A stretch of 64,000 nt of DNA from Microtetraspora niveoalba (GTDB taxonomy: Bacteria > Actinomycetota > Actinomycetes > Streptosporangiales > Streptosporangiaceae). The stretch lies in contig NZ_BBYM01000014.1 of NCBI RefSeq assembly GCF_001570405.1, forward strand, positions 23,316 through 87,315, read 5' to 3'. Positions within the stretch are counted from its first letter, which is position 1. Each line of letters opens with the position of its first letter. Below the pieces are notes generated by a model. The model searched no databases. It was not told where the DNA came from and saw only the letters and a list, made by a program, of their open reading frames with translations. Positions 14,954 to 35,084 of the stretch are shown in pieces. The translations under genes and the position numbers were made by a program.

Positions 14954-14988
14954 TCTGACGGCACGTCGCGGCCCCGCCCGCCGTACGT

Positions 14989-15016
14989 GCCCGCCCATCA
15001 CGGCGGATGGGCGGGC
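14989..15016. terminator. Bidirectional terminator hairpin
   Basis: A perfect 11-bp stem, GCCCGCCCATC paired with GATGGGCGGGC, encloses the loop ACGGCG. It sits between two convergent genes, as expected for a shared terminator. No T tract follows. Confidence 0.65.
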
Positions 15017-15024
15017 CGCGGTGG

Positions 15025-15828: not shown

Positions 15829-15993
15829 ATCGTATTCCCCTCATCGTGGGCTCCGTCCGCGGACAGCGGATGGAGCGGACGGGAGAAACGCTACGAATGA
15901 TCGCGCGACCAGGGATGGCACCATTCGGACCAGCAGTTCCGGCGGAAATCGGACCGGGCGTTCCCGGGGTCCACGACCGGATGACGGGCGGGG

Positions 15994-16764: not shown

Positions 16765-16982
16765 GTCCTCGCACGTCCTCGCGCCCCGGCCCCGCCGGCT
16801 GGAGGCGCGTCCCCGCCCCTCCGTCTCGTACGGCCCGGCACAGGGTCGAGGATCCCACGCGCAAAACCCGCCTCTCAGGCAACATCCGTAAATGATGGGA
16901 TGACTTAGCCTGGCGATCAGCGGGCAAAGGTAAAAAGCAGGGCGCGACTGCGTACGGATTCCGTCAGTCGGGGAGCGGTGTG

Positions 16983-18476: not shown

Positions 18477-19504
18477 CCGTTCCCCGGGTGAGCACTCTCC
18501 CGGAGGCCGTTGCCCGGGCGACCGTGCGCCTCGTGACCGTGCTCGGGAGGGCTCGGGGGCGCTCCCGGGGCGGCGTAGGCGAGCCAGCGGTCGATCTCGG
18601 CGAGCACCCGCTCGCGCACCGGCGCGGCCGACAGCAGCAGGTCGTGCATCCCGCCGGGGACCCGCACGCACGTCACGTGCGGACCGATCCTGGTGGACCA
18701 GCGGGCGATCTGTCCGGGGTCGAGGACGACGTCGGCCGAGTGCGCCTCCGGGACGAAGTCCCGCACCCGCAGCCCGCGGTCGGAGCACAGCACCAGCACG
18801 GGCACGTCGACGCCGAGTCCGGCGTGCAGCCGCCGGTGGGCCCGGCGGATCGCCGCCAGCCACACCGCGTGCACGGGGAAGCCGCCCAGCGGCTTCCACC
18901 CCAGGTCGTACTCCCACTCCCCGCTGTGGTCGCGGTGCAGGCTCGTGCCGTACGCGGTGGCGGCGCCGAGGGGCAGCACGGCCGTCGCGGGGAGCCGGGC
19001 GAGGAGGCCGCCGAGCGCGTCCGCGGCTCCCCTGGCCAGGGCGGGCACGTTCAGGTCGAGGAACGGGCTGTTGAGGACGAGGGCGTCCGCCAGCCCGCGG
19101 CCGCGCACGCGGTCCGCCCACAGCGCGGCGATCAGGCCGCCGGTCGAGTGGGCGCTGATCACCAGCTCGTCGTGGTCGGCCCGGACGATCCGGACCGCCT
19201 CGTCGATCTCCGGGAAGTGCTCCGTGACGCTGCCGACCAGGCCCCTCGTCTGGTGCGCCAGTAGGGACCGGCCGTACTTGCGCAGGTCGAGCGCGTAGAA
19301 GCTGATCCCCTGCCTGACGTAGTGGTCGGCCACGTGGGTCTGGAAGAAATAGTCGGTGAAGCCGTGGATGTAGAGGACGGCGCGGCGGGCGCCGGCCACG
19401 AGGCGCCGTACGAGCGTGGCGACGACCTCGCCCTCGGCGTCGTGGCCCATGGGCAGCACGAGGGCCTCGTAGTCCTCGCCGAGGATGTCGGGGCCGGCGT
19501 TCAC
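18446..19504 (-). CDS. Alpha/beta hydrolase (serine aminopeptidase/lysophospholipase-like)
   Basis: The 352-residue cytosolic hydrolase has an oxyanion-region motif YIHGFTDYF (about 45-53), nucleophile elbow SAHSTGG (about 116-122), LCSDRG and a terminal GGMHDL, forming a plausible Ser-Asp-His triad. It resembles S33/monoglyceride-lipase-type proteins. The last 40 residues are a low-complexity His/Gly/Pro tail whose codons overlap the end of the convergent hydrolase gene by 31 bp. The start at 19504 is the first of the frame. Confidence 0.8.
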   Translation of the reverse strand: MNAGPDILGEDYEALVLPMGHDAEGEVVATLVRRLVAGARRAVLYIHGFTDYFFQTHVADHYVRQGISFYALDLRKYGRSLLAHQTRGLVGSVTEHFPEIDEAVRIVRADHDELVISAHSTGGLIAALWADRVRGRGLADALVLNSPFLDLNVPALARGAADALGGLLARLPATAVLPLGAATAYGTSLHRDHSGEWEYDLGWKPLGGFPVHAVWLAAIRRAHRRLHAGLGVDVPVLVLCSDRGLRVRDFVPEAHSADVVLDPGQIARWSTRIGPHVTCVRVPGGMHDLLLSAAPVRERVLAEIDRWLAYAAPGAPPSPPEHGHEAHGRPGNGLRESAHPGNGHQGKANSPK

Positions 19505-21427: not shown

Positions 21428-22477
21428 TCAGGCCCGGAAGGCGTCCTTGGCCAGGCGGCGGACCTTCTCCTCGTCGATCTTGTGTCCGAGGCCCGGCTGG
21501 GTGAGGGGAACGGCGACGACCCCGCCGGACGCGCCGACCGGCGGGGTGACGATCTGGGCGCTGCGCGGCGGCTCCGCGACATCGCTCGGCAGCGTGCAGC
21601 CGGGCAGGCTCGCCACCGCCACCGTGGCCGCCCGGGCCAGCCCCACTCCGAGCCCGCCCGCGCAGGTGACGTCCCAGCCGGCCGCCACGGCGGTGTCGTG
21701 CGCGAGCCGTACGGAGGACAGGGAGCCGAACCGCGCCGGGCGCAGCAGCAGGCCGCGTCCCGCCCGCGCGGCCACCGCCTCGTCCAGTTCCTCGACGGAA
21801 CGCGCCTCGACGACGACGGCCGCCGCGACCCGCTCCTGCAGGTCGGCGCTCGCCGCCAGGTCGGTGAACGGCCGCTCGATCGCCACCAGCCCGTACGCGT
21901 CGAGCGCCTGGAGCTGGGAGATCTCGGTGTACGCGCCGCGCCCGTCCACGGCGATCGCAAGGCCGGGGTAGGCGGCGCGGACCGCGCGCAGCGGCTCGAC
22001 GTCCCACCCGGGGTGCACGTCCATGGTCACGTGGGCGTATCCGGCGCAGACGTGCCGGTTCACCCGGGCCACCATGCCCTCCAGCGAGCGCTCCGCGCCC
22101 AGCCGCACGGTCGCCATCAGGGAGGTGCGGCTGCCGCCGAGGGCGTGGGCCAGCGGGACGCCCTTCATGCGGGCCCACAGGTCCCAGCAGGCCATATCGG
22201 CGGCCGAGCCTCCGGGGATGCGCCCCAGTTCTGAGGGGTGCTCCCAGTCGACGCCGATCAGGGCGGCGGGGAGGGACTCCTCCAGGGAGGCCCACAGTTT
22301 CTCCTGCCCGTCCTCCCGCTCGTCTCGCCGCTCACCGGGCCGCGCGGCGGGGGGCCGGACGGCCTCACCCCAGCCGACCATCCCGCCGTAGTCGGTGATC
22401 CTCACCAGGATGCTCTCTGGCCGCCTCCCGTAGGGCAGGGTCAGCCTGAAGAGTTCGAGCTCCCGGACACGCGGCAA
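21428..22477 (-). CDS. Enolase-superfamily (MR/MLE) protein lacking catalytic lysines
   Basis: The 349-residue protein matches the o-succinylbenzoate-synthase/N-acylamino-acid-racemase fold along its length (WGEAV, AADMACWDLWARMKGVPL, YAHVTMDVHPGWD, AIAVDGRGAY, AIERPF). The KxK pair before PG is replaced by T-M-D (about 150-152). The DES metal motif reads EAR, and the Lys of the KPxRxGG motif is Arg (LLRPARFGS, about 244). Only the metal-ligand-like Asp (about 176) and Glu (about 200) remain. It may be a pseudoenzyme or have a new activity. TTG at 22477 is chosen because GGAGGGGG lies 7 nt upstream. It follows the MFS gene by 16 bp. Confidence 0.82.
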   Translation of the reverse strand: MPRVRELELFRLTLPYGRRPESILVRITDYGGMVGWGEAVRPPAARPGERRDEREDGQEKLWASLEESLPAALIGVDWEHPSELGRIPGGSAADMACWDLWARMKGVPLAHALGGSRTSLMATVRLGAERSLEGMVARVNRHVCAGYAHVTMDVHPGWDVEPLRAVRAAYPGLAIAVDGRGAYTEISQLQALDAYGLVAIERPFTDLAASADLQERVAAAVVVEARSVEELDEAVAARAGRGLLLRPARFGSLSSVRLAHDTAVAAGWDVTCAGGLGVGLARAATVAVASLPGCTLPSDVAEPPRSAQIVTPPVGASGGVVAVPLTQPGLGHKIDEEKVRRLAKDAFRA

Positions 22478-22493
22478 GTGACATCCCCCTCCG

Positions 22494-23939
22494 TTAGGTT
22501 TCCATGGTGCCCGGTGCGCGGGAGTGCTCAAAACGTCCGGAGGAGAGCGCGGCGGCGCCGGCCATGAAAGCGAGCAGGCCGAAGCAGACCAGATAGCTGG
22601 CCGCCGACCGGTGCGCGGCGGTGGAGATCGCGCCGGTGACCGCGACGGCGACCACGGAGTAGATCGATTCGCCGATGGAGAGCGACGCGCTGTTGGCACC
22701 CTTCTCCGCGGGCGGCGACAGCTCCAGGATCAGCACGGACAGGGTCGGATACACCAGCCCGATGCCGAACCCGCCCACACACCAGGCGAGGAACCCGACG
22801 ATCACCGGCACGTCCGGGAACACCGTCAGCGCCGTCAGCAGGATCGCCGCCGCGATCAGGGAGGTTCCCGTACGCAGGATCACGCGCCGGTCGTGCCGCC
22901 CGCGCCCCTGGATCCACGATCCGGTCGACCAGAAGACCGCGCCGCCGGTGAGCGCGAGACCGGCCTGCGTGGGGCTCAGGCCGCGATCGGTGGTGAGCAG
23001 GAGCGGCACGAACACCTCGGCCGCGAAGAACGCGCCCGCCGCCAGGCCCCGCAGCGCCACGACGGCCGGGACGCCGCGGGCCGCGCGCAGGGTCCCCTTA
23101 GGCAGCAGCCGGGGCAGGGCGACCGCGAGGACGGCCAGCCCGGCGACCAGGAGCGGCACGATCCCGGCCCCGCTGCCGTACTGCATGAGCGCCGCTCCGG
23201 TCGCCACGACCACACCCCAGACCAGCTTCTTCGCGAACCCCGGGGACGCGCTCCCGTCGGCCGCTCCGGGGTCCCCCGGCCCGGCGTCGGCCGCTTCCGC
23301 TCCCGGCCGGGGGCGGTCCGCGAGCCCCCGCCACAGGAAGACGGCCGCGGGGGCGGCGAGCAGCGGCACCCCGAGGAACACCCAGCGCCAGCCCACGTGC
23401 TCGACGACCAGGCCGGTGATGGCCGGGCCGACCAGCGAGGGCACCACCCAGGCCGCCGAGAGCAGGGAGAACACCTTGGGATGCAGCTCCGGCGGATAGA
23501 CCCGGTCGATCAGCACGTACAACGCGACCGAGAACATGCCGCCGCCGAGCCCCTGCAGGAACCGCCCGGCGATGAAGACGTCCATGCTCTGGGCGGTGCC
23601 GGCGACCAGCAGGCCGCCGCCGAAGCCGGCCAGACCGGTCCACAGCGGCGCCAGCGGGCCGCGCGTGTCGCTCCACCTGCCGCCCACCAGGGTCGCGATC
23701 ACACTGGCGACCAGGCTCGCGTTGAAGGCCAGGCCGTACAGCGACATGCCGTCGAGCCGCTCGGCGACGACGGGCATCGCGGTGGCGACCGCGAGGTACT
23801 CGAACGCGATCAGCATGATGATGGCCACCATGCCGATGCCCAGAGCACGATGACGCTGCGAGAACACCGGCGGTGCCGTGATTACCGAATCCACGGCTGG
23901 GACGTTACAGACGGCCGTCTTCTGTCCGAAATCGGTCAT
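22494..23939 (-). CDS. MFS transporter
   Basis: A 481-residue major-facilitator protein with about 14 hydrophobic segments. The loop after the second helix is GGRWSDTRGP, the typical MFS signature, and GRFLQGLGGGMF lies in helix 4. The composition suggests a DHA-type drug/metabolite exporter. The start ATG at 23939 is only 5 nt after the stop of the VWA gene, so translation is probably coupled; a GTG at 23894 is an alternative. It links the MoxR-VWA operon to the enolase-like gene. Confidence 0.88.
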   Translation of the reverse strand: MTDFGQKTAVCNVPAVDSVITAPPVFSQRHRALGIGMVAIIMLIAFEYLAVATAMPVVAERLDGMSLYGLAFNASLVASVIATLVGGRWSDTRGPLAPLWTGLAGFGGGLLVAGTAQSMDVFIAGRFLQGLGGGMFSVALYVLIDRVYPPELHPKVFSLLSAAWVVPSLVGPAITGLVVEHVGWRWVFLGVPLLAAPAAVFLWRGLADRPRPGAEAADAGPGDPGAADGSASPGFAKKLVWGVVVATGAALMQYGSGAGIVPLLVAGLAVLAVALPRLLPKGTLRAARGVPAVVALRGLAAGAFFAAEVFVPLLLTTDRGLSPTQAGLALTGGAVFWSTGSWIQGRGRHDRRVILRTGTSLIAAAILLTALTVFPDVPVIVGFLAWCVGGFGIGLVYPTLSVLILELSPPAEKGANSASLSIGESIYSVVAVAVTGAISTAAHRSAASYLVCFGLLAFMAGAAALSSGRFEHSRAPGTMET

Positions 23940-23944
23940 TGGTC

Positions 23945-25099
23945 CTAGGCCATATTCCGCTCGATATTGCGTTCCACCCATTGGGAGATGTCGCGGCGCT
24001 CGATGGCGGCCGCCATCATGCCGGGGAACGCGTCCGGCGTGCAGGCGAACGCGGGCACCCCCAGCGCCGCGAGCGCCGCCGCGTTGTCGCGGTCGTAGGA
24101 CGGCGCGCCCTCGTCCGACAGGGCCAGCAGGACGATCACCTGCACGCCGGCGGCCGTCATCGCGGCCACCCGGCGCAGCATCTCCTGGCGGACGCCTCCC
24201 TCGTAGAGGTCGCTGATCAGAATGAAGATCGAGTCCGTGGGCCGGGTGATCAGCCCCTGTCCGTAGGCGATCGCCCGGTTGATGTCGGTGCCGCCGCCGA
24301 GCTGGGTGCCGAACAGCAGCTCCACCGGGTCGTGCAGCCGGTCCGTCAGGTCGACCACCGCGGTGTCGAACACGACGAGGCTGGTCCGCAGCGACCGCAT
24401 CGACGCGAGGACCGCGCCGAAGACGCTGGAGTAGACGACCGACGCCGCCATCGACCCGCTCTGGTCGATGCACAGGACCACCTCGCGCTGGACCGCCCGC
24501 TGCCTGCGCGCGTACCCCACGAGCCGGGACGGCACGACCGTGTTCCGCTCGGGCAGGTAGTTCTTCAGGTTCGCCCGGATGGTGCGGTCCCAGTCGATGT
24601 CGGCCACCCGCCGGGGCCGGTGCGTGCGCGCCGACCGGTCCAGCGCGCCGGTGACCGCCGCCCTGGTCCGCTGCGCGAGCTTGGCCTCCAGCTCGGCGAC
24701 GACCTTGCGGACCACCGCGCGGGCCGACTCGCGCGCCTTCTCCGGCATGACCCGGCTCAGCGAGAGCAGCGTGCCGACCAGGTGGACGTCGGGCTCGACC
24801 GCCTCCAGCATCTCCGGTTCGAGCAGGAGGCGGCTGAGGTCGAGCCGCTCGATCGCGTCCTTCTGCATCACCTGCACGACGGTGGACGGGAAGTAGGCGC
24901 GGATGTCCCCCAGCCAGCGGGCCACCCTGGGCGCGGACCCGCCGAGGCCCGCGCCCCGCTCGCCGCGCCCCGCTCCCCCGTCGTACAGCGCGGCCAGTGC
25001 CACGTCCATGCCGGCGTCGGCCCCGCCGAGCGCGCAGCCCGTGCCGTCGGCGTCACCTCCGCCGAGGACCAGCCGCCAGCGGCGCGACCGCTCCTCCAT
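23945..25099 (-). CDS. VWA-domain protein of the SWIM/MoxR operon
   Basis: The 384-residue protein has a helical N-terminal half and a C-terminal von Willebrand A domain with a complete MIDAS: CIDQSGSM (about 207-214), the Thr in GGGTDIN (about 268) and the Asp in ISDLYEGG (about 294). It is the last of five genes running SWIM, DUF5691, MoxR, DUF5682, VWA. VWA partners of MoxR ATPases (as in RavA-ViaA or CbbQ-CbbO) recruit substrates for the AAA+ ring. ATG at 25099 has GGGGAGGG just upstream; a GTG overlapping the preceding stop near 25163 is an alternative. Confidence 0.87.
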   Translation of the reverse strand: MEERSRRWRLVLGGGDADGTGCALGGADAGMDVALAALYDGGAGRGERGAGLGGSAPRVARWLGDIRAYFPSTVVQVMQKDAIERLDLSRLLLEPEMLEAVEPDVHLVGTLLSLSRVMPEKARESARAVVRKVVAELEAKLAQRTRAAVTGALDRSARTHRPRRVADIDWDRTIRANLKNYLPERNTVVPSRLVGYARRQRAVQREVVLCIDQSGSMAASVVYSSVFGAVLASMRSLRTSLVVFDTAVVDLTDRLHDPVELLFGTQLGGGTDINRAIAYGQGLITRPTDSIFILISDLYEGGVRQEMLRRVAAMTAAGVQVIVLLALSDEGAPSYDRDNAAALAALGVPAFACTPDAFPGMMAAAIERRDISQWVERNIERNMA

Positions 25100-25158
25100 C
25101 ACGCCCTCCCCGGAGCTCCAGGCACGGTCACCGCGCCCTCCCGACGCCTCCACCCCGA

Positions 25159-27654
25159 TCACCACGCCCTCCCGAGGATTTCCAGCACGGTCCGGACCGC
25201 GGACGCGGCCTGCTCGTCGTCGGGGGCCGCGCCGTCGCCCGCTCCCCCATGGCCCGCACCCGCGACGCCGTCCGCGGCCGGCGTGCCGGACCTGACCCGC
25301 TCGCCGATCGCGCGGCGCTCGGGAGCGGCGAAGGCGCCGAACGTGCGCCGCAGGAGCGGGAGCACGTCCACGAACGCCTCCGGTGACAGCCCGGTCAGCC
25401 ATCCGTCCACGGCCGCCAGCAGCCGGGGATCGTGGACGAGCAGCAGCCCCCCTCCTGAGAGGAAGCCCTCGATCCACGCGGCGGCGCGCGCCGGCGGATG
25501 GCCGGGGGACATCGCCCGGGCCATGCGGACCTGGACGTCGTCCGCCATCCGCCCGTCGAACAGGATCCGCACCAGGCGGCCTTCGATCAGGCCGGGCAGG
25601 TCGCTCCGGTTCGCGAGGCCGCGCAGGGTCGAGAGCCAGCGGTCGCCCGGCGCCTCCTGCCCCGCATCCCCCGGCCCGGCGTGGTCGTTCTCGTACGATC
25701 CGGGGTGCAGCAGGGCGACCGCGGAATGGACCGCGTCGATCTGGGCGACGAGGTGCCGCGCGGGTTCGTCGTCCAGCCCGGTGACGGCGATCGGCAGCCC
25801 GGCGCAGACGCGGGTCAGCAGCGAGTCCACGATCGCGGCCAGTCCCGTGGAGGGCGTGCCGCGGACGTCGCCGTACCGCTGCGCGCGCACCAGCGCGGGA
25901 AGCGCCGCCATCAGATGCCCGACGTCACTGTCCAGGGCCGCCCGGTCGCCGATCGCCCGCAGCACGTACGGCAGGGCCTCCGGCAGGTCGGCGAGCAGGC
26001 ATCGCTCGACCAGGGCGGTCAGGTCGGCGAGCGGCGCCTCCGGGTCGGCGGCCAGCTCGCACACCCGCGTGGTGGCCGCCGCCTCGACGGTGATCCCCCA
26101 GACCGCCGCCTCGATCAGGCCGACGTCGAACTCCGGCCGCCACTCCAGGGTCCAGGACTCCTTGAACGTGCCCTTGCCCCTGCTCTCCCGGGGAGTGCCC
26201 CACGGGACGCCGATGAGCCCGAGCCGGTGCAGCAGCCTGCTCCGGTCGAGGTCGAGCGTCTTGCGGAGGTCGAGGTCGTGGTCCCTGCCGAGCGCCTCGG
26301 GCTTGAGCCTGACCCGCCGCTGCTCCTCCCGCAGGTTCCGCTGCAACGGGACCATCGGGGTCGAGTCGGGCACCCGGCCGAGCCGCTCTCCGAGGACCAT
26401 CCGGCGCCGCACCAGCTCGGCGGGCAGCTCGTCCCCCTCGCACAGGACGGCCCTGACCGCCTCGCTCACCTCGTTCAGGCCGGCGAGCGGCCGGTCCCGC
26501 AGCGTCGCCAGGCCGTGCGCGAGCCTCACGGCCTCGATGACGTGCGCGGACGAGACGTGCAGGTCCTCCTGGCGGAGCACCTCGGCCGCCCGCGCGAGCC
26601 ACCGCTCCACCGGGCGGTCGGTTGCGGTGAACAGGTGGTGGTACCAGCCCGGGGAGGTGACGCCCGCGCCGTAGCCGCTCCAGGCGGCCAGCCGGCCGTG
26701 CGTCCACGGAACCCAGGTCGTCTCGACCCGGACCTTGGGCAGGCCCCTGAGCAGCCGGTCGTCGTCGGCCACCCGGGACGACGCCGTGAGCGCGGGGACG
26801 TGCCAGGCGCCGCACACGACCGCGATCTCACGGAAGCCGTCCTTGACCGCCTGCCGGAGCGACCGGCGCATGTACGCCTCGCGGCGCGCCTCGTGCGGGT
26901 CGGGCGTGTGCCCCTCGCGGACGGCCGCCATGGCCTCCGCGATCGCTTCGAACACCGCCCCGGGCCCGGCCTCGCCATCCGTGCCGCCCTCGCCCGAACG
27001 GTCCGGCCCGTGCACCCCGGGCCCGGCCTCGCCATCCGTGCCGCCCTCGCCCGAACGGTCCGGCCCGTGCGCCCCGGCCCCGGCCGTGCCGCCCTCGCCC
27101 GGATGTCCCGTCTCCCGCCCGGGGCCGGCCGGGTCCCCGCTCCGGCGGGCGCCGCGCCGCTCGTCCGGGTGGCCTGACGGGTGATCCGCCGGGTGGTCGA
27201 GCCGGTGCTCGACGGCGTCCTCCCACCATCGCTCCGGATCGTCGTACCCGGCCGCCTCGGCCAGCGCGGCGATCGGGTCGACGCGGACGGCCTCCTCGCC
27301 CTGGGACGCCTCGCCCTCGGGCGCCGCGCCCGCGCCGATCGCGAGCGAGTGCGCGGCGGGCAGGTCGCAGAACCGCACCTCGGCGCCGGCCTCCACCGCG
27401 TAGCGGATCGCCTGCCACTCAGGCGAGAACACCGCGAACGGCCAGAACGCGGCCTTCGCCGGGTCACCCGGCACGTACGCGAGCAGCGCGACGGGCGGCT
27501 CCATGCCGGGGTCGGCGGCGAGCGGCAGCAGCGCGTCCGCCTCCGGCGGCCCCTCGATGAGCACGATGTCCGGCTTCAACCGCTCCAGGGCGGAACGCAC
27601 GGCGCGGGCGGACCCCGGACCGTGGTGCCGGACGCCCAGAATCGTGGTCGTCAC
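25159..27654 (-). CDS. DUF5682-type large protein of the SWIM/MoxR operon
   Basis: The 831-residue protein begins ILGVRHHGPGSARAV and has EGPPEADALLPL (about 35-45) and RFCDLPAAHS (about 95-105). This N terminus recalls the Ring-B/TraB-like fold with conserved His and Glu and is diagnostic of DUF5682. A Gly-rich insert holds a duplicated 19-residue repeat (about 193-231). The rest is helical and includes CGAWHVPAL (about 280). It is soluble, with function unknown. It sits between the MoxR ATPase gene (12 bp upstream) and the VWA gene (59 bp downstream), so it probably works with both. Family assignment is from recognition of the N terminus and gene order. Confidence 0.82.
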   Translation of the reverse strand: MTTTILGVRHHGPGSARAVRSALERLKPDIVLIEGPPEADALLPLAADPGMEPPVALLAYVPGDPAKAAFWPFAVFSPEWQAIRYAVEAGAEVRFCDLPAAHSLAIGAGAAPEGEASQGEEAVRVDPIAALAEAAGYDDPERWWEDAVEHRLDHPADHPSGHPDERRGARRSGDPAGPGRETGHPGEGGTAGAGAHGPDRSGEGGTDGEAGPGVHGPDRSGEGGTDGEAGPGAVFEAIAEAMAAVREGHTPDPHEARREAYMRRSLRQAVKDGFREIAVVCGAWHVPALTASSRVADDDRLLRGLPKVRVETTWVPWTHGRLAAWSGYGAGVTSPGWYHHLFTATDRPVERWLARAAEVLRQEDLHVSSAHVIEAVRLAHGLATLRDRPLAGLNEVSEAVRAVLCEGDELPAELVRRRMVLGERLGRVPDSTPMVPLQRNLREEQRRVRLKPEALGRDHDLDLRKTLDLDRSRLLHRLGLIGVPWGTPRESRGKGTFKESWTLEWRPEFDVGLIEAAVWGITVEAAATTRVCELAADPEAPLADLTALVERCLLADLPEALPYVLRAIGDRAALDSDVGHLMAALPALVRAQRYGDVRGTPSTGLAAIVDSLLTRVCAGLPIAVTGLDDEPARHLVAQIDAVHSAVALLHPGSYENDHAGPGDAGQEAPGDRWLSTLRGLANRSDLPGLIEGRLVRILFDGRMADDVQVRMARAMSPGHPPARAAAWIEGFLSGGGLLLVHDPRLLAAVDGWLTGLSPEAFVDVLPLLRRTFGAFAAPERRAIGERVRSGTPAADGVAGAGHGGAGDGAAPDDEQAASAVRTVLEILGRAW
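26962..27075 (-). repeat. Two tandem 57-bp repeats inside the DUF5682 gene
   Basis: Copies at 26962-27018 and 27019-27075 are identical except for one base. Each codes for 19 residues with the core HGPDRSGEGGTDGEAGPG. A shorter, diverged third copy follows. The length keeps the frame, so the linker can expand or contract without breaking the gene. Confidence 0.9.
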
Positions 27655-27666
27655 CGCGTCACCCGC

Positions 27667-28743
27667 TCAGCCCGCATCGCGGCAGGCACGGTAGAAGTCA
27701 CGCCAGTCCTCGCGCTCGCGTACGACGGCCTCCAGGTACTCCCGCCAGACGACCCGGTCGGACACGGGGTCCTGCACGACGGCCCCGACGATCCCCGCCG
27801 CCACGTCGGAGGGCCGCAGCACGCCGTCGCCGAAGTGGGCCGCGAGGGCGAGGCCGCTGGTCACGACGGAGATGGCCTCCGCGGTGCTGAGCGTGCCGCT
27901 CGGCGACTTGACCTTGGTCCGGCCGTCGGCGGTCACTCCCGAGCGCAGCTCGCGGAACACCGTGACGACCCGGCGGATCTCCTCCAGCCCGGCCGGCGTC
28001 TCGGGCAGCTCCAGGGAGCGGCCCAGTTGGGCGACGCGGCGGGAGACGATGTCCACCTCCTCCTCGGCACTCGCGGGCACGGGCAGCACGACGGTGTTGA
28101 ACCGCCTGCGCAGGGCGCTGGACAGCTCGTTCACCCCGCGGTCCCGGTCGTTGGCGGTCGCGATCAGGTTGAACCCCCTGGCCGCCTGGACCTCCTCGTT
28201 CAGCTCGGGGATCGGGAGCGTCTTCTCCGACAGGACGGTGATCAGCGCGTCCTGGACGTCGGACGGCATGCGGGTCAGCTCCTCCACGCGGGCCAGCCGT
28301 CCCTCGGCCATCGCCCGCATGACCGGGCTCGGGGTCAGCGCCTGTCTGGACGGGCCCTCCGACAGCAGCCGCGCGTAGTTCCACCCGTAGCGGACGGCCT
28401 CCTCGGCGGTGCCCGCCGTGCCCTGCACGAGCAGGGTCGAGTCGCCGCAGATCGCGGCGGCCAGGTGCTCGGAGAGCCAGGTCTTGGCCGTCCCAGGGAC
28501 GCCGAGCAGCAGCAGCGCCCGGTCGGTGGCCAGGGTGGCGACGGCGACCTCGACGATCCTTCTCGGGCCGATGTACTTGGGCGTGATCACGCCTCCGGGA
28601 TGGTCGGGGTCGCCGAGCAGGTACGTCGTCACCGCCCACGGCGAGAGCCGCCAGCCGGGCGGCCGCGGCCGGTCGTCCTCCTTGGCCAGGATCGCCAGTT
28701 CGTCGGCGTACTGGTCTTCCGCGTGCGGGCGCAGAACCGTCAC
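27667..28743 (-). CDS. MoxR-like AAA+ ATPase of the SWIM/MoxR operon
   Basis: The 358-residue AAA+ protein has Walker A GVPGTAKT (about 79-86), a Walker B position reading LARVEEL (about 147-153) and sensor 1 ATANDRDRGVNELSSALRRRF with the arginine finger (about 200-220). MoxR ATPases remodel or activate partner proteins with a VWA cochaperone, and a VWA gene lies two genes downstream. Walker B has Glu where Asp is usual, with the catalytic Glu kept. The GTG start overlaps the upstream stop by 4 bp. Confidence 0.9.
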   Translation of the reverse strand: MTVLRPHAEDQYADELAILAKEDDRPRPPGWRLSPWAVTTYLLGDPDHPGGVITPKYIGPRRIVEVAVATLATDRALLLLGVPGTAKTWLSEHLAAAICGDSTLLVQGTAGTAEEAVRYGWNYARLLSEGPSRQALTPSPVMRAMAEGRLARVEELTRMPSDVQDALITVLSEKTLPIPELNEEVQAARGFNLIATANDRDRGVNELSSALRRRFNTVVLPVPASAEEEVDIVSRRVAQLGRSLELPETPAGLEEIRRVVTVFRELRSGVTADGRTKVKSPSGTLSTAEAISVVTSGLALAAHFGDGVLRPSDVAAGIVGAVVQDPVSDRVVWREYLEAVVREREDWRDFYRACRDAG

Positions 28744-30509
28744 TTGTCCTCCTCGCCTAGCGGGCCGCCGGTCCCGTCGGGGGCGGCGCCGTGTCCGTCG
28801 TCTGTCCGTCTCTTCTCGGGTGTCTCGCCGGACGTCTCGCCTCGCCCGCCGGCGGGCCCGTCCCCGCGCCCGGCGGGGCCGTCCGGGGAAAGCACTCCGG
28901 GGCCGCCCGGGGAAAGCCCCGCGAAGCCGCTCGGGGAAGGCCCGGCGGAGCCGTCCGGGGAAGGCGCGGCGGTCCCGTCCGCCGACAGCTCCCTCGCCAT
29001 GTCGTGGCGGAAGCGGAGCGTGGCGGACACCTCGTGGACCTCGGGGAGGCCGAGGCGCGCCACCTGGTCGTACGCCGAGGCGTCGAACCGCTCCCCGGCG
29101 AGCCGCGCCAGTTCACCGGCGTTCCACGGTTGTGCCGTCGCGACGCTCGCGATCTTCTCCAGCACGGCCTTGGCCAGCGGCACGCCCCAGGGCCGGGGTA
29201 TGCCGCCCAACATCATGATCATCTGGCCGTCCACCGGATGCCTGCGGACGAAGTCCGCCGCCTTCTGCGACTGCTCCGCCGGAGGCAGGATCGCGAGCAG
29301 GTCGGTCAGCGGCTCCACCTCGACCAGCGCCCGCGCCCAGATCCCGTCGCGCTGGAGGATCGCCGCGCGGGTCCAGCCCATGCGGACCTCCCGCGCCCAG
29401 TCGCCGACCTCCATGGTCGTGATCTCCTCCGGGGTGAGCCCGAGGTGCCCGGTCCAGAAGGACAGCGGCGTGTGCGCGACGACCTGCTGCAGCCACCAGC
29501 CGCGTTGCCCGGTCCCGGCGGGCGGCCGGGCCCGGACCCCGTCGCGTTCCATACGGCTGTCGCACGCCTTCGGCGGCTCGGCGCGCAGCCGGTCGCCGTC
29601 CCGCGTGAGCAGCCGTGCCGCGCGCTCGGCCATCCGCGTCCCGAGTCGCGACTCCGGAAGGCGGGTGAGCAGGTCGGCGGCGGCCTGCCGCACCTCGCGG
29701 CGGCGGTCGTCGAGCGCGGCCTCCAGGAACGGCTCGTCGGCCATGGTCAGCCCCTCGGCGAGGATCCGCGTGAACGCCGCGCGGTCTTCGGGGGTCTCCC
29801 TGTCCCACCCTGCCGCGAGCAGCTCCCTGGCCGCCTCCGGGTCGGAGGCGCGCAGCGCGGCGAGGTGGTCCCGGCGGTCACCGCTGGTGCCGAACTCCCA
29901 CACGCCGTCGGATCCGGCGGCCCCGCCGGTCGGCTCGTCCCGGAGGTAGGACCAGGCGGGGTTGAGCCGGGCGAGCCACCGCCCGCGCGCCCCGGTGAGC
30001 ACGCCCAGGTGAGCCCGGATCGACTGGTCCCTGGCCCCCAGGTCGAGGAGCCTTGGGACGAGGCGCGCCGGAACCCGCGCGCCCCCGGCGGCCGCGATCT
30101 CCAGCCACTCCGGCAGCAGGCGTCCCTGTTCCCCGGCGAGGATCCGGTCCAGCCGGTCGGCCGCGGCGCGGCCCACCAGGGGCCGGGGCTCCGGCGAGGC
30201 GGGGGGCAGCGACCGGCCCCTATGCGGTCGCTGTCCCGCCCGCGCCCGGATCACCTGTACGGCCGCCTGCTCCAGGAGATCGACCGGAGGCGCGACCGGT
30301 GCCTCTCCCGGCCCGTCAGGCAGCGATCCGCCCGGTACGGGCCTCCTGTCCGTGCCGACCAGCGCCGCGGACACGAGGTCCTCCCACGCCGCCGTCTCGG
30401 GGATCGGGCGCCCGGAACCCCGGCCGGGAGCCTCGCGGGCCTGATCCACCGGCCCACGCGTCAGGTCGCCCGGGGCGGCGGAGCCGCCGTCGTGACGTGT
30501 CGCGGTCAC
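28740..30509 (-). CDS. DUF5691-type protein of the SWIM/MoxR operon
   Basis: The 589-residue soluble protein has an N-terminal WEDLVSAALVGTDRRPVPGG motif (about 41-60) and leucine/alanine-rich helical repeats resembling HEAT-like scaffolds (RREVRQAAADLLTRLPESRLG). The C-terminal 90 residues are low-complexity (SPDGSAGPSPSG-type). The GTG start overlaps the SWIM gene stop by 4 bp, and its own stop overlaps the MoxR start by 4 bp. The DUF5691 assignment rests on the N-terminal motif and the order of neighbours. Function is unknown; a scaffold or substrate adaptor is a guess. Confidence 0.8.
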   Translation of the reverse strand: MTATRHDGGSAAPGDLTRGPVDQAREAPGRGSGRPIPETAAWEDLVSAALVGTDRRPVPGGSLPDGPGEAPVAPPVDLLEQAAVQVIRARAGQRPHRGRSLPPASPEPRPLVGRAAADRLDRILAGEQGRLLPEWLEIAAAGGARVPARLVPRLLDLGARDQSIRAHLGVLTGARGRWLARLNPAWSYLRDEPTGGAAGSDGVWEFGTSGDRRDHLAALRASDPEAARELLAAGWDRETPEDRAAFTRILAEGLTMADEPFLEAALDDRRREVRQAAADLLTRLPESRLGTRMAERAARLLTRDGDRLRAEPPKACDSRMERDGVRARPPAGTGQRGWWLQQVVAHTPLSFWTGHLGLTPEEITTMEVGDWAREVRMGWTRAAILQRDGIWARALVEVEPLTDLLAILPPAEQSQKAADFVRRHPVDGQMIMMLGGIPRPWGVPLAKAVLEKIASVATAQPWNAGELARLAGERFDASAYDQVARLGLPEVHEVSATLRFRHDMARELSADGTAAPSPDGSAGPSPSGFAGLSPGGPGVLSPDGPAGRGDGPAGGRGETSGETPEKRRTDDGHGAAPDGTGGPLGEEDK

Positions 30510-31996
30510 AGCAGCACCACCTGGCCTTCCTCATCCCATGTCGTCAACGGCCGCAGCCCCCGGGGCGTCCACTCGCAGGCGACGGTGACCGGGTGGCCGC
30601 CCGACACCGCGAGCAGCCGCCACGGTGTGCCGGCCGACGGATCGAGCCGCATCCCGCTCACCTCGGCGCCCCCATGCCGACCGGCCGCCGGGCCGGAAGG
30701 CTCCGCGCCGAGGGCGGCCGCCGCCGCGCCCTGAGCCGAGACCGCCGCGTCCCCGGCCGAGACCACCCCGTCCCGAGCCGCCGCGGGGTCGGCGAGGAGC
30801 CAGCCGCCGCCGTCCGCCGGCACCACTCCGGTCAGGACGACCGGCCACGACTCCGTCCAGGGGTCCTCGGCCAGCACGCCGGCCAGGAGGCCGGACGCCT
30901 CGGCCGCGCTCACCCCGAGCGGCGGCCCCGAGGGGGCCGATCCGTGCCGCCGGACCACCAGCGCCCGCAGCGGCGCAGCCCCCGGATAGAACGCGAGGTC
31001 GGCGTCGACCGCGGTCCCGCTGACCAGGGAGGCGTCGAGCGCCTGCCCCACCGGCGCGAACGACAGCACGAGCGCCGCCCTGCCGGTCTCCCGGCCGCGC
31101 AGCCAGACGCGGCGGGCGATCAGCCGGTCCTGCTCCTCGTCCCGGCTGCCGATCACGTCCCACCGGTCCCGTACGGCGGGCGACGCGAGCACGTCCTCCC
31201 TCGCCGCGGGGAACCCGATCCGGGCGCGGACCGCCTCGCGGAGAGCGGGCGGCAGCCCGGCCGCGCGGCGGTGCGCGACGGCGAGCAGGTGGACCAGCGC
31301 GTACTCCCCGAGGAGACGGCCCGGCCAGTCGTCGTCGCGCAGCACGTCGGGCAGCCGGGTGAACGTCCCCGCCACCCCGGGCGCCTGCGCGTCGACCATG
31401 CGCTTGGCGAGGGAGTCCCACTCGCCGGGGCCGGTGCGCCGGGCGTCGGCGACGCCCTGCGCGATCTGGTCGGCCAGCCATCTCTCCAGCTCGGACAGCC
31501 CCGCCGTGACCCGCTGCTCCCGCTGCAGGGCGCGCCGGTCGGGCGTGCCCCCGGTGCGCGGCCCCGGGGTCGGGGAAGCCCCGGCCTCTCCCGTATCCCC
31601 CTGGGCGGCCTCGGCGGCCGCCCTCTCCTGTGCGGCGGCGAGCCGGGACGCCTGCTTCCCCACGCGTTCCCTGCGCTGGTCCATCCACTCGGCGGCCCAG
31701 TCGGCGGGCTCGTCCGCGGCCGGCACCCCGTCGGCCGACCAGAGCAGGAGCAGGCCCAGGGAGTGCTTGCAGGGGAACTTCCTGCTCGGGCAACTGCACC
31801 GGTACGCCGGCTCGGACAGGTCGACGCAGGCGCGGTACGGCTTGGACCCGCTTCCTTTGCACTCACCCCACAACACCTCGGGCGTCACCCCGAGGACGGA
31901 CCACTTCGCGGGCGAGCTCACGCCCGCGGCGGCCTTCTGCGACGCCGCGTCGGGTGCCAGTGCCAACACCTGATCGCGACTCCAGCGTTCGATCAC
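30506..31996 (-). CDS. SWIM zinc-finger protein of the MoxR operon
   Basis: The 496-residue protein contains an exact SWIM signature, CxCx6CxH, in RCSCPSRKFPCKH (about 65-77), which should bind zinc and contact nucleic acid or protein. An N-terminal VIERWSRDQVLALAPDA segment is typical of these operon-linked SWIM proteins. The rest is helical with a Gly/Ala-rich insert. The start is set at GTG 31996 because the conserved part begins there; no Shine-Dalgarno sequence is seen, and TACTGT 7 nt upstream fits a -10 box for a leaderless transcript. It is the first gene of the operon. Confidence 0.85.
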   Translation of the reverse strand: MIERWSRDQVLALAPDAASQKAAAGVSSPAKWSVLGVTPEVLWGECKGSGSKPYRACVDLSEPAYRCSCPSRKFPCKHSLGLLLLWSADGVPAADEPADWAAEWMDQRRERVGKQASRLAAAQERAAAEAAQGDTGEAGASPTPGPRTGGTPDRRALQREQRVTAGLSELERWLADQIAQGVADARRTGPGEWDSLAKRMVDAQAPGVAGTFTRLPDVLRDDDWPGRLLGEYALVHLLAVAHRRAAGLPPALREAVRARIGFPAAREDVLASPAVRDRWDVIGSRDEEQDRLIARRVWLRGRETGRAALVLSFAPVGQALDASLVSGTAVDADLAFYPGAAPLRALVVRRHGSAPSGPPLGVSAAEASGLLAGVLAEDPWTESWPVVLTGVVPADGGGWLLADPAAARDGVVSAGDAAVSAQGAAAAALGAEPSGPAAGRHGGAEVSGMRLDPSAGTPWRLLAVSGGHPVTVACEWTPRGLRPLTTWDEEGQVVLL

Positions 31997-32171: not shown

Positions 32172-35084
32172 GTGACTCCGCGAACCGCGCGAACCGCGCT
32201 CATCGGGCGCTCGGGCGAGCTCGGCCGACTGCTGGGCGTGCTCGACGCGTCCGAGGGCGGGCTGGCCGGGGTCGCGCTGGTGGGCGGCGACGCGGGGATC
32301 GGCAAGACGCGTCTCGTCAACGAGGTCAGGGACCTGGCCGAGGAGCGCGGGTTCACCGTGCTCACCGGGCAGTGCGCGGAGCTCGGCGACACCCTGCCGT
32401 ACCTGCCGCTCGTGGACGCGCTGCGCGGGCTGGCGGACCCGGACGTGTCCGGCGGCGACGCGCTCGCCGCCTGGCCCGCGCTGCGGCGGCTGCTTCCCGG
32501 CGCCGACCCCGACGCGGCGGGGGCGATGACGGGCGCGCTCGCCCAGCAGCAGCTCTTCGGCTCGGTGCTCGGCCTCCTGGCGTGCCTCGCCGAGCGCCGC
32601 CCGGTGCTGGTGGTGGTCGAGGACCTGCACTGGGCCGACCGCTCGACCCGCGACCTGCTGGTCTTCCTCACCCGGATGCTGCAGCGCGAGCGGGTCGCCC
32701 TGATCGGCACCTACCGGACCGACGACCTGCACCGCAGGCACCCCCTGCGCCCGGTCCTCGCCGAGCTGCAGCGCCTGCCGCTGGTCGGCACGGTCGAGCT
32801 GCCCCCGCTCGGGGACGACGACCTGGCCCGCCATCTCGCCGGCGTCGACGCGGCCTCCCCCCAGCCGGGAGGCGTGACGGACGACGTGATCGGCCGGGTC
32901 GTCGAGAGGGCCGGCGGCAACCCCTTCTTCGCCGAGGAGCTGCTCACCGCCGCCGCGACCCGCGGCGGCGTGCCGGGCGGCCTGTCCGACCTGCTGCTCT
33001 CGCGGGTGGAGGCGCTGTCCGACCAGGCGCGCCACGTCCTGCGGGTGGCGGCGGTGGCGGGCCACAGCGTCGACCACGACATGCTCGCGGACGCCGCCGG
33101 GCTCGGGGAGGTCGCGCTCGACGACGCGCTGCGCGAGATCGTCTCGCGCGGGCTGCTGACCGCGGGCCGGTACGGCTACGCGTTCAGGCACGCGCTGCTC
33201 CAGGAGGCCGTGTACGACGACCTGCTCCCCGGCGAGCGGACCCGGCTGCACGGCGCCTTCGCCCGGATGCTCGCCGCGCGCGGCGCGCCGGCCGCCGAGC
33301 TGGCCCACCACTATCAGGCGGGGCACGACCTGCCCGGCGCGCTGCGCGCCTCGGTCGAGGCGGGCCGGATCGCGGCGGGTCTCGGTGCGCCCGCCGAGGC
33401 GCACCGGCACTTCGACCGGGTGCTGGAGCTCTGGGAGCACGTGCCCGACGCCGAGCGGGTCACCGGCACGACCGCCGTCCGCGTCACCTTCTCCAGCGCC
33501 GCTGCGGCCGCGGACGCCGGGGAGTACCGCCGGGCCATCGCCCGGATCCGGCGGCTGCTCCCGACGCTCGACGACCCGCTGCTGGTCTCCGAGGCCAACG
33601 AGCGGCTCGCCTACTATCTGAGCGACTCCGATCTCGGGGCCGGCATGGTGGAGGCGGCCCGCGCGGCCGTGGACGCGCTGCCTCCGGACGAGCCGACCCC
33701 CTTGCTCGCCCGCGCGCTCGCGACGTACGCCCGGACCATGTTCGCCGCGTCCGGCGCCACCGTGCGCGAGCTGGCGACGCGGGCGCTCGACGTCTCCCGG
33801 ACGGTCGGGGCGCGCGACGCCGAGGTCAGCGCGCTGATCTCGCTGGCGATCGTGGAGGAGGCGACGGGCACGATCGAGCGGGTGGTGGAACTGCTCGACC
33901 TGGCCGCCGCGACGGGGTCGGACGACCTGTCGATCCACCTGCGCGCCACCTTCCACACGGCCCGGGTGCACTACGAGCACGGCGAGCTCGAGGCCGCCGC
34001 GCGGCTGGCGGGCGCGGGCATCGAGCTGGCCGCCCGCAGCGGCCTAACCTGGAGCACGTACGGCACGGACCTGCGTTTCCTCAGCTTCCTCATCCAGTAC
34101 GCGGCGGGCGACTGGGACGCGGCCGAGCGGATCGCGGCGGGGTTCGGCGTGCGCGTCGGCACGCTCGCCGCGGCGCACCTGTCCTCGTTCGCGCTCTTCG
34201 TCGAGGTCGGGCGGGGCGACGACGCGGCCGACGAGCGGCTGTCGTGGCTGCGGCCGTTCTGGCGGCCGGACGAGCGCGGCGGCGCGGGCGATCCGCTGGT
34301 GGTCTACATGGCGGGCGGGCTCGCCGCCGAGCAGGCGCTCTGGCGCGGCGATCCGGAGACGGCGCTGCGCCACGTGACGGCGGTGACGGACACGCTCGAC
34401 GCCTTCGACCCGGGGCTGCTCCGGATCTGCGCGACCGGCCTGTGGGCGCTGGCGGAGGGCGCTGCGCCGGGCGACGCGCGCGAGCGCGCCGACGACATGA
34501 TCGAGCGGGCGCGGTGGGCCGCCGCGAACGGCCCGTACGGCCCGCGCGCGGAGCTGGGTCCGGAGGGCGTCGCCTGGCTGATGCGGGCCGAGGCCGAGTG
34601 GCACCGGGTCCGGGGGACGGCGGAGCCGGAGGCGTGGCGGAGGGCCGCGGACGCCTTCGGGTTCGGCTTCGTGTACGAGGAGGCGCGGTCCCGTTGGCGG
34701 CTCGCCGAGTCCCTGCTCGCGGTGGGCGAGCGCGAGGCCGCGCGGGCCGAGTGGACCCGGGCCGTCGAGACGGCCGACCGGCTCGGCGCCGCTCCGCTGC
34801 GGGCGGCGCTGGAGGCGCTGGGCGCGCGCGCCCGGTTCACCGAGCCGTCGCGGCCGGCCGCCGCCCCCGAGAACGGCGGTCTCGACGCGTTGACGGTCCG
34901 CGAGCGCGAGGTGCTCGGGCACGTGGCGGCGGGCCTGCCCAACCGCGAGATCGGCAGGCTGCTGTACATCTCGCAGAAGACCGTGAGCGTGCACGTCTCC
35001 AACATCCTGGCCAAGCTCGGCGTGGCCAGCCGTACGCAGGCGGCGGCGATCGCGCACCGGCACGGCGTGTCCGCCGACGGCTGA
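32172..35084 (+). CDS. LAL-family (large ATP-binding LuxR) transcriptional regulator
   Basis: The 970-residue protein starts with an AAA/STAND ATPase module: Walker A GGDAGIGKTRL (about 37-47) and Walker B VLVVVEDLHWAD (about 148-159). A long TPR-like helical middle follows. It ends with a LuxR helix-turn-helix (LTVREREVLGHVAAGLPNRE onward, about 905-960). LAL proteins are ligand-responsive activators of catabolic or antibiotic genes. It diverges from the SWIM operon and precedes an aldehyde dehydrogenase gene by 82 bp, either of which could be its target. The start is GTG at 32172. Confidence 0.92.
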   Translation: MTPRTARTALIGRSGELGRLLGVLDASEGGLAGVALVGGDAGIGKTRLVNEVRDLAEERGFTVLTGQCAELGDTLPYLPLVDALRGLADPDVSGGDALAAWPALRRLLPGADPDAAGAMTGALAQQQLFGSVLGLLACLAERRPVLVVVEDLHWADRSTRDLLVFLTRMLQRERVALIGTYRTDDLHRRHPLRPVLAELQRLPLVGTVELPPLGDDDLARHLAGVDAASPQPGGVTDDVIGRVVERAGGNPFFAEELLTAAATRGGVPGGLSDLLLSRVEALSDQARHVLRVAAVAGHSVDHDMLADAAGLGEVALDDALREIVSRGLLTAGRYGYAFRHALLQEAVYDDLLPGERTRLHGAFARMLAARGAPAAELAHHYQAGHDLPGALRASVEAGRIAAGLGAPAEAHRHFDRVLELWEHVPDAERVTGTTAVRVTFSSAAAAADAGEYRRAIARIRRLLPTLDDPLLVSEANERLAYYLSDSDLGAGMVEAARAAVDALPPDEPTPLLARALATYARTMFAASGATVRELATRALDVSRTVGARDAEVSALISLAIVEEATGTIERVVELLDLAAATGSDDLSIHLRATFHTARVHYEHGELEAAARLAGAGIELAARSGLTWSTYGTDLRFLSFLIQYAAGDWDAAERIAAGFGVRVGTLAAAHLSSFALFVEVGRGDDAADERLSWLRPFWRPDERGGAGDPLVVYMAGGLAAEQALWRGDPETALRHVTAVTDTLDAFDPGLLRICATGLWALAEGAAPGDARERADDMIERARWAAANGPYGPRAELGPEGVAWLMRAEAEWHRVRGTAEPEAWRRAADAFGFGFVYEEARSRWRLAESLLAVGEREAARAEWTRAVETADRLGAAPLRAALEALGARARFTEPSRPAAAPENGGLDALTVREREVLGHVAAGLPNREIGRLLYISQKTVSVHVSNILAKLGVASRTQAAAIAHRHGVSADG

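What the first reader, a model, noticed from the sequence alone, without database searches (positions are those of the whole stretch)
21428..31996. Five-gene SWIM / DUF5691 / MoxR / DUF5682 / VWA operon of unknown function
Five genes (30506-31996, 28740-30509, 27667-28743, 25159-27654, 23945-25099) are read in one direction with 4-bp overlaps or small gaps. They combine a zinc-finger reader (CxCx6CxH), a helical-repeat scaffold, a MoxR AAA+ motor, a large DUF5682 protein and a VWA protein with a full MIDAS. MoxR-VWA pairs elsewhere act as protein-remodelling machines. The added SWIM, DUF5691 and DUF5682 parts suggest a larger machine that senses a nucleic-acid or protein signal, with no known target. 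A stress, DNA-repair or conflict role is possible but unproven. This is the best candidate in the window for an undescribed system.
Basis: partly seen in the sequence, partly recalled or inferred. Interest (0 to 1): 0.8.

Follow-up and report, generated by a model that had tools for sequence, protein, structure and literature searches.

The report
ATP-driven hydrolase operon, relative of yehLMPQ
Five neighbouring genes encode a widespread but little-studied bacterial machine, related to the orphan E. coli genes yehL-yehM-yehP-yehQ, in which an ATP-burning ring and its partner probably work on a protein that carries the intact active-site signature of a known protease superfamily.

Summary
In detail: SWIM, DUF5691, MoxR, DUF5682 and VWA genes lie at the stated places, in one direction, with overlaps of 4 and 4 bp and gaps of 12 and 59 bp. 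The MFS and enolase-like genes inside the stated span are separate. The set is real: 68 of 68 untruncated relatives (of 80 loci kept) have all five, and in 447 sampled genomes DUF5691 at Pfam's cut-off occurred only beside DUF5682 (21 of 21). It is not a new locus: E. coli K-12 yehL, yehM, yehP and yehQ are a sister type with DUF4132 proteins instead of DUF5691. I found no published function. New point: the DUF5682 N-terminus matches the TraB/TIKI superfamily (hhalign score 50.3; best of 100 column shuffles 21.7), and its H10, E34, R258 and H285 are invariant in 117 of 117 sequences (37 of 37 not picked by motif). DUF5682-VWA and SWIM-DUF5691 fusions argue for contact. Best reading: a MoxR-VWA machine that drives, loads or gates a TIKI-type hydrolase, with SWIM and HEAT-like adaptors. 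Presence in nearly all E. coli and in 78 of 81 genomes of a probable Streptomyces genus argues against a high-turnover defence island.

The parts
30506..31996 (-). SWIM zinc-finger protein (496 aa)
   Evidence: Pfam SWIM 7.6e-5. Its middle part is remotely related to E. coli YehQ outside the finger (hhalign prob 74, 138 columns). A loose motif CxC-5to15-CxH is in 85 of 92 type I SWIM proteins as extracted, window included.
31745..31825 (-). SWIM finger (CxCx6CxH), residues 58-84
   Evidence: Pfam match, sequence
28740..30509 (-). DUF5691 protein (589 aa), HEAT-like repeats, probable scaffold
   Evidence: PF18944 E 6.9e-144; HEAT_2 7 of 15, HEAT_EZ 5 of 15, HEAT 2 of 15 relatives, weak scores; one ORF with SWIM in 15 of 68 loci
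27667..28743 (-). MoxR AAA+ ATPase, YehL-type (358 aa)
   Evidence: AAA_5 3.8e-39; 41% identical to YehL over 356 positions; Walker A lysine, Walker B E-E, sensor N and R214 invariant in 115 of 115
28480..28503 (-). Walker A motif GVPGTAKT, residues 81-88
25159..27654 (-). DUF5682 protein (831 aa): N-terminal TraB/TIKI-type hydrolase domain plus C-terminal region without another Pfam match above cut-off
   Evidence: PF18934 1.2e-273; hhalign to TraB prob 90, score 50.3 vs best of 100 shuffles 21.7; C-terminal part
27553..27636 (-). first TIKI motif block: G7xRHH (H10, H11) to E34
   Evidence: H10, H11 and E34 invariant in 117 of 117, 37 of 37 outside the pattern-selected loci; H to E distance 24, as in the first row of the TraB alignment
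26800..26883 (-). second TIKI motif block: R258-E259..G282xxH285
   Evidence: R258, E259, G282 and H285 invariant in 117 of 117; aligned with TraB R182 and G207xxH210
23945..25099 (-). VWA protein (CoxE type, 384 aa)
   Evidence: PF05762 9.4e-55; 38% identical to YehP; in one ORF with DUF5682 in three type III loci and one type I locus, L132
24449..24466 (-). MIDAS core DQSGSM, residues 212-217
   Evidence: D212, S214, S216, D297 in 110 of 110; T271 in 107 of 110, N in 3

Best explanation
This is a type I member of a widespread YehL-type MoxR-VWA machine whose central enzyme is DUF5682, probably a cytosolic TIKI/TraB-superfamily hydrolase, most likely a peptidase. Shown: the five genes form a conserved unit, MoxR and VWA keep their ATPase and MIDAS residues, and DUF5682 keeps the residues that mark the TraB/TIKI active site. 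Inferred: the MoxR hexamer docks on the VWA protein as in NorQ-NorD; ATP hydrolysis twists the VWA protein; because VWA and DUF5682 touch (they are fused in some relatives), this force opens, loads with metal or feeds the hydrolase. SWIM and the HEAT-like DUF5691 form the adaptor module that chooses the substrate; in the E. coli type that place is taken by DUF4132 proteins (several with WGR or HEAT parts) plus a SWIM protein (YehQ). The substrate is unknown. Its near-core status within the two groups examined suggests protein maturation or quality control under stress rather than a dispensable weapon.
For: Unit: all five in 68 of 68 untruncated loci; 12 truncated ones dropped. DUF5691 at or above Pfam's cut-off in 16 of 198 Actinomycetota and 5 of 249 genomes of the Comamonas phylum, each time on the same contig within about 6 kb of DUF5682 (Fisher p 1e-22 and 6e-8 for presence, unadjusted for phylogeny). 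TIKI domain: hhalign DUF5682 N-terminus vs TraB prob 77.8 over 37 columns, 82.2 over 202 columns with a deeper profile, 90.4 and score 50.3 on match columns, against a maximum of 21.7 in 100 column shuffles, 19.6 reversed and at most 21.6 for six other profiles; hmmscan of 27 members gives TraB_PrgY_gumN (4 members, best 0.0096) and the Tiki-superfamily ChaN family (2 members, 0.016). Invariance 117 of 117 across four types, 37 of 37 among those not found by a motif pattern. Fusions: DUF5682-VWA (L051-L053, L132), SWIM-DUF5691 15 of 68. Adaptor swap: DUF5691 versus DUF4132; among eight DUF4132 proteins scanned WGR in 4 and HEAT_2 above cut-off in 2. NorQ-NorD precedent: PMC13036017 abstract. 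Near-core status.
Against: No structure could be predicted and no solved structure matched DUF5682 by sequence. The match is to TraB; a 7-sequence erythromycin-esterase-family alignment did not match. The second GxxH block aligns only with the deeper profile (versus 60). 80 of the 117 sequences came from a scan that used RHH and GxxH patterns, so their H10, H11, G282 and H285 are partly built in; E34, R258 and the other 37 sequences are free of this. Not all TIKI-fold proteins are hydrolases (PMC6254334 passages). No assay, substrate or interaction is known; fusion and synteny show association, not mechanism. One of 15 regions fetched (L209) has DUF5682 with no recognisable partner.
Confidence: 0.5

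Rival explanations
1. A metal- or cofactor-insertion chaperone, as NorQ-NorD, CbbQ-CbbO and CoxD-CoxE: MoxR-VWA loads a metal into a separate client enzyme, and DUF5682 is the client-binding or metal-delivery part rather than a working peptidase.
For: MoxR-VWA pairs are described as facilitating target remodelling and metal insertion (PMC13036017 abstract). NorQ is among the nearest solved relatives (2.1e-10; the best matches are midasin AAA domains, 7.4e-19). The VWA is of CoxE type. A DUF4132 gene and MolR are linked to molybdenum in passages of PMC8533742; that yehH/yehI are MolR-like is recalled, and the primary paper is not held. yehM is among genes mutated in copper-grown E. coli (PMC12409786 passages).
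Against: No metalloenzyme that I recognised stands among the 22 most shared flanking clusters of 80 loci (clusters beyond these were not printed). Invariant catalytic-type residues in DUF5682 suggest it is itself an enzyme.
Confidence: 0.25
2. A DNA- or RNA-linked stress machine: SWIM (and WGR in the sister type) binds nucleic acid, and the ATPase-hydrolase removes or cuts proteins there.
For: SWIM in both types; WGR in YehF and in 4 of 8 DUF4132 proteins scanned, WGR being known from PARPs (recalled). D. radiodurans genes with WGR and DUF4132 rise on DdrO depletion (PMC8533742 passages); whether those genes sit beside MoxR there was not checked.
Against: No WGR was found in the window's five proteins nor, by Pfam, in YehI. 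SWIM can serve protein contacts (recalled). An SbcD-like gene (my reading, no Pfam scan) recurs nearby in seven genera, but within Streptosporangiales synteny.
Confidence: 0.13
3. A conflict (anti-phage or anti-plasmid) system of the MoxR-VWA ternary kind described by Kaur and others 2020.
For: MoxR plus VWA plus a third part resembles those ternary systems (PMC7159879, start of abstract and passages); the window MoxR has a sub-threshold match to bpMoxR (22.6 bits, cut-off 27); several DUF5682 types in one actinobacterial genome; phylum-level patchiness (17 of 198, 11 of 249, 4 of 148, each including its centre genome).
Against: Near-universal within a species and a genus (5284 of 5426 E. coli; 78 of 81). 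Only weak AAA-level PADLOC hits for MoxR. No yeh, SWIM, DUF5682, TIKI or TraB in that paper's main text. No effector domain in the window's five proteins, apart from the TIKI-like domain proposed here. One unverified, unannotated faecal scaffold was the only hit in 50,697 phage records.
Confidence: 0.1

Closest known systems
E. coli K-12 yehI-yehK-yehL-yehM-yehP-yehQ region (YehL subfamily of MoxR)
   Same: MoxR 41%, VWA 38%, DUF5682 26% and 40% in two segments; SWIM protein; same core order MoxR-DUF5682-VWA
   Different: SWIM gene at the 3' end; DUF4132 proteins and a WGR protein (YehF) upstream instead of DUF5691. I found no published function; K-12 yehH is annotated as a pseudogene.
NorQ-NorD, CbbQ-CbbO, CoxD-CoxE, RavA-ViaA (MoxR-VWA chaperones)
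   Same: MoxR AAA+ plus VWA partner; NorQ is among the closest solved relatives, after midasin
   Different: No partner of TIKI type, SWIM or HEAT scaffold is known to me there; Walker B is E-E here and D-E in RavA; RavA only 21% identical
TraB/PrgY/GumN and TIKI proteases (TIKI superfamily)
   Same: GxxH - 24 residues - E ... R - 27/28 - GxxH layout in the reference rows
   Different: No MoxR-VWA partnership found in print; DUF5682 has about 500 further residues and extra invariant H11, S77, E79, D97, E149
MoxR-vWA ternary conflict systems (Kaur and others 2020, PMC7159879)
   Same: MoxR plus VWA plus a third component
   Different: Third component here is DUF5682 with SWIM/DUF5691; DUF5682, SWIM, TIKI and TraB have no occurrence in that main text

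Membership tests
YehL-type MoxR-VWA system | MoxR closer to YehL than to RavA | tested here: met
   41% to YehL versus 21% to RavA. In the tree of 30 rows type I is one side of a branch only with weak support (61/64), and type III lies inside type II.
YehL-type MoxR-VWA system | Adjacent DUF5682 and CoxE-like VWA genes | tested here: met
   68 of 68 untruncated loci; K-12 yehL-yehM-yehP
YehL-type MoxR-VWA system | SWIM protein related to YehQ | tested here: inconclusive
   SWIM motif in both; hhalign prob 74 over 138 columns outside the finger; K-12 YehQ was not hit by the type I SWIM profile
TIKI/TraB superfamily (DUF5682 N-terminus) | Sequence-profile similarity over the whole domain | tested here: met
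   hhalign prob 82-90, 196-202 columns, controls far lower; only 37 columns with the first, shallower profile
TIKI/TraB superfamily (DUF5682 N-terminus) | Two GxxH motifs, Glu and Arg with conserved spacing | tested here: met
   H10, E34, R258, G282 and H285 in 117 of 117, 37 of 37 not pattern-selected; the first Gly is Pro in 3 of 3 type IV and 5 of 10 type II. The TraB layout is the invariant columns.
TIKI/TraB superfamily (DUF5682 N-terminus) | TIKI fold in three dimensions | not testable with these tools
   structure prediction switched off; no PDB sequence match
TIKI/TraB superfamily (DUF5682 N-terminus) | Similarity to the erythromycin-esterase branch | tested here: not met
   hhalign prob 1.2 and 0.4 with 7 sequences; a shallow test of one branch, not of the superfamily
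TIKI/TraB superfamily (DUF5682 N-terminus) | Hydrolase activity | not testable with these tools
   needs an assay
MoxR-vWA ternary conflict systems | Third component of a described type (iSTAND, FtsH and beta-propeller named; VMAP likewise) | tested here: not met
   the Pfam scan at E 0.001 shows none in the five proteins; bpMoxR only below cut-off
Known anti-phage systems | PADLOC family match | tested here: not met
   six proteins scanned: five without a match, MoxR only AAA-level hits with E 0.0046 or worse

The most novel reading that the evidence does not exclude
A new class of ATP-dependent proteolytic machine: a MoxR ring that works through a VWA adaptor on a TIKI-fold peptidase, with exchangeable adaptors (DUF5691 or DUF4132, often HEAT- or WGR-bearing), present in E. 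coli K-12 and, as a near-core gene, in a probable Streptomyces genus, and overlooked because each part bore a DUF or y-name.
Probability: 0.28. Interest if true: 0.87.

Novelty: new variant of a known kind. Interest (0 to 1): 0.62.

Why it matters
Four orphan E. coli genes (of which yehM was counted in 5284 of 5426 genomes) and a near-core actinobacterial operon gain a concrete, testable biochemical hypothesis. MoxR-VWA pairs have few known clients; here the likely client, a protein with a recognisable active site, is encoded beside them and is sometimes fused to the VWA. If the TIKI assignment holds, point mutants of four residues in E. coli K-12 yehM would test the whole idea directly. The yehI/yehH (DUF4132) proteins would also be tied to the same machine, a lead for the old molybdate phenotype of molR (recalled).

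Tried and rejected
PDB sequence searches: nothing for DUF5682, three weak hits for VWA, 20 hits for TraB, mostly designed proteins. The erythromycin-esterase branch as a closer relative of DUF5682: not supported. DUF5691 as a diverged DUF4132, or as part of YehQ: not supported (hhalign prob 0.1). A recurrent sixth gene: none among the 22 most shared clusters printed; nearly all are confined to Streptosporangiales or to Streptomyces and its kin, one MFS-like cluster spans five genera of several orders (the ORF list holds antisense ORFs, so the ranking is rough). Defence-island reading: no support. The enolase-like and MFS genes as operon members: rejected. Promoter or terminator scan: uninformative. 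Literature: DUF names, 0 papers; at least two of yehL/M/P/Q, 2 papers (not opened); at least one of yehM/P/Q, 71 papers of which 40 were listed, many plainly unrelated; I opened passages in six of these and found mutant or expression lists or a medium name.
Full report
What is there. The window comes from an 8.47-Mb genome, near Microtetraspora by its DUF5682 protein (82% in the best segment). On the minus strand five genes follow one another: SWIM (31996-30506), DUF5691 (30509-28740), MoxR (28743-27667), DUF5682 (27654-25159) and VWA (25099-23945), with 4-bp overlaps twice and gaps of 12 and 59 bp. Pfam confirms each name; NCBIfam has no match for SWIM, DUF5691 and DUF5682 and only hits far below cut-off for MoxR and VWA. 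A LuxR-type AAA_16 regulator is divergent upstream (32172-35084 +); an MFS transporter and an enolase-like gene follow downstream. Among the 22 most shared flanking clusters printed, these two downstream genes recur only in Streptosporangiales genera, so the unit is the five genes.

Is the unit real? I dropped 12 loci cut by contig ends (two of these still had all five). Of the remaining 68, 68 have all five families: 48 in the window's order, 20 with SWIM-DUF5691 turned round and divergent from MoxR-DUF5682-VWA. SWIM and DUF5691 are one ORF in 15 of 68. The 68 include Actinomycetota and single loci from Cyanobacteria, Chloroflexi, Chthonomonas, Sphingobacteriales and Comamonas, and annotated records show the same five in a Deinococcus and a Rhizobium plasmid. 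In evenly drawn genomes DUF5682 is patchy: 17 of 198 Actinomycetota, 11 of 249 in the phylum of Comamonas, 4 of 148 in the phylum of a Sphingobacteriales MAG; each count includes the genome that was the centre of the draw. DUF5691 reached Pfam's cut-off in 16 of 198 and 5 of 249, every time on the same contig and within about 6 kb of DUF5682. Five further DUF5691 hits were below the cut-off and in genomes without a DUF5682 match.

Four types. Reading 35 fetched regions (one, L211, is the same Comamonas locus as L129) and K-12 shows that MoxR, DUF5682 and VWA are the constant core and that the rest varies. Type I: SWIM plus DUF5691 (window). Type II: DUF4132 proteins plus a YehQ-like SWIM protein; E. 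coli K-12 yehI-yehL-yehM-yehP-yehQ is of this type. Of eight DUF4132 proteins scanned, four have a Pfam WGR domain and two have HEAT_2 above cut-off; YehI has neither. Type III: DUF5682 and VWA in one protein, behind a 1683-1962-residue partner without Pfam match. Type IV: VWA-MoxR-divergent DUF5682; the window's own genome carries one on another contig (L055). Of the 15 regions, 14 have such partners (one of them, L205, cut by the contig end) and one, L209, has DUF5682 alone.

What DUF5682 is. No annotation beyond the DUF name was found. An alignment over types I-III shows invariant R9, H10, H11, E34, S77, E79, D97, E149, R258, E259, G282 and H285. A TraB/PrgY/GumN alignment made from 21 genome-derived sequences has invariant G8, H11, E35, R182, G207 and H210. 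In the reference rows the distance from the first His to Glu is 24 in both; from Arg to the last His 27 versus 28. Profile comparison gives prob 77.8 over the first motif block, and with 102 sequences 82.2 over 202 columns, pairing R with R and GAWH with GAGH. On match columns only the score is 50.3 (prob 90.4); the best of 100 column shuffles is 21.7, the reversed profile 19.6, five other profile targets at most 21.6 and the erythromycin-esterase set 18.2. Independently, TraB and ChaN (Tiki superfamily) are the only other Pfam families hit by more than one of the 27 members (4 and 2). Over 117 sequences of the four types H10, H11, E34, S77, E79, D97, E149, R258, E259, M262, G282 and H285 never vary. 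Eighty of these were found by a scan that used the RHH and GxxH motifs, so part of that is built in; the other 37, found by Pfam profile or by name, are also 37 of 37 at each site, and E34 and R258 were in neither pattern. The TIKI layout of two His and two Glu, and the spread from metal-dependent (Tiki) to metal-independent members and to one without the catalytic residues, is from passages of PMC6254334. I could not test the fold.

The motor. MoxR keeps the Walker A lysine, the sensor Asn and R214 in 115 of 115; its Walker B is E-E in 115 of 115, whereas RavA has D-E. VWA keeps MIDAS D, S, S and D in 110 of 110 and T in 107. The nearest solved relatives of MoxR are midasin and NorQ. In NorQ-NorD a VWA finger enters the ring and force on a NorD linker is proposed to enable metal insertion (PMC13036017 abstract).

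How it most likely works. The motor pair is adjacent to, and sometimes fused with, a hydrolase-like protein, so the simplest reading is that it acts on that protein: opening it, loading its metal, or feeding it. SWIM-DUF5691 (one ORF in 15 of 68 loci) behaves as a separate adaptor module, since it is inverted as a block in 20 of 68 and DUF5691 is exchanged for DUF4132 proteins in type II. The step from association to mechanism is inference.

Role. The operon is not a high-turnover accessory in the two groups examined: yehM is found in 5284 of 5426 E. coli genomes, 5166 with at least 80% of it, and DUF5682 of any type in 78 of 81 genomes of the genus of G023, 74 of them with a best match of 799 bits or more, the level of type I there. 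In the window's own family it is 59 of 80. With the window protein as query, 30 of 72,556 plasmid records and 1 of 50,697 phage records (an unverified scaffold without annotation) have a match. This argues for a housekeeping or stress role. Leads to a target are weak: molybdenum and DdrO-regulated WGR/DUF4132 genes (PMC8533742 passages), a copper-selected yehM mutation, a butanol-strain yehQ mutation, yehP in a list of CRP targets and among genes lowered in simulated microgravity, yehM in a list of genes expressed in colonic fluid.

Known or new. The genes, Pfam domains and the YehL subfamily are known. In the held library no paper names DUF5682 or DUF5691, and the searches that combined MoxR with TraB, TIKI, SWIM or DUF4132 gave no paper that I recognised as describing this set (listings only). 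Subscription papers, including the original MoxR classification and the molR paper, were not available. I therefore rate it a new variant of a known kind, MoxR-VWA machines, with a new assignment for its central protein.

Noticed in passing
L051:2475-7526, L052:1573-7461: Type III paralogues in two genomes of the probable Streptomyces genus carry a 1683- or 1962-residue protein without any Pfam match (E 0.001) directly upstream of MoxR and the DUF5682-VWA fusion; an undescribed large partner.
   Followed up: partly
L055 (G000:C31:97511-117510), 13941-18900: The window's own genome has a second, type IV locus (VWA-MoxR-divergent DUF5682) near the end of a contig; GxRHH is PxCHH there but H, E, R and the second GxxH are kept.
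   Followed up: partly
L009:1475-8912 (E. coli yehF, yehH, yehI): WGR (YehF) and DUF4132 (YehI) genes of K-12 probably belong to the yehL-Q machine; K-12 yehH is annotated as a pseudogene.
   Followed up: partly
L209: A DUF5682 gene (741 aa) with intact motifs but no recognisable MoxR, VWA, SWIM or DUF5691 in 20 kb.
   Followed up: no
L132:9977-13603: In Streptomyces griseocarneus a type I DUF5682 and VWA form one 1208-residue ORF; real fusion or lost stop not decided.
   Followed up: no
MT835988.1 10638-12755 (L214): A faecal 'Bacteriophage sp.' scaffold, unverified, encodes a DUF5682 relative (27%); may be a bacterial contaminant.
   Followed up: no
window 32172-35084 (+): Divergent LuxR-type AAA_16 regulator just upstream of the operon; possible regulator.
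   Followed up: no
window 27667-28743: Walker B of this MoxR clade is E-E in 115 of 115 members, where RavA has D-E: a simple signature for the subfamily.
   Followed up: yes
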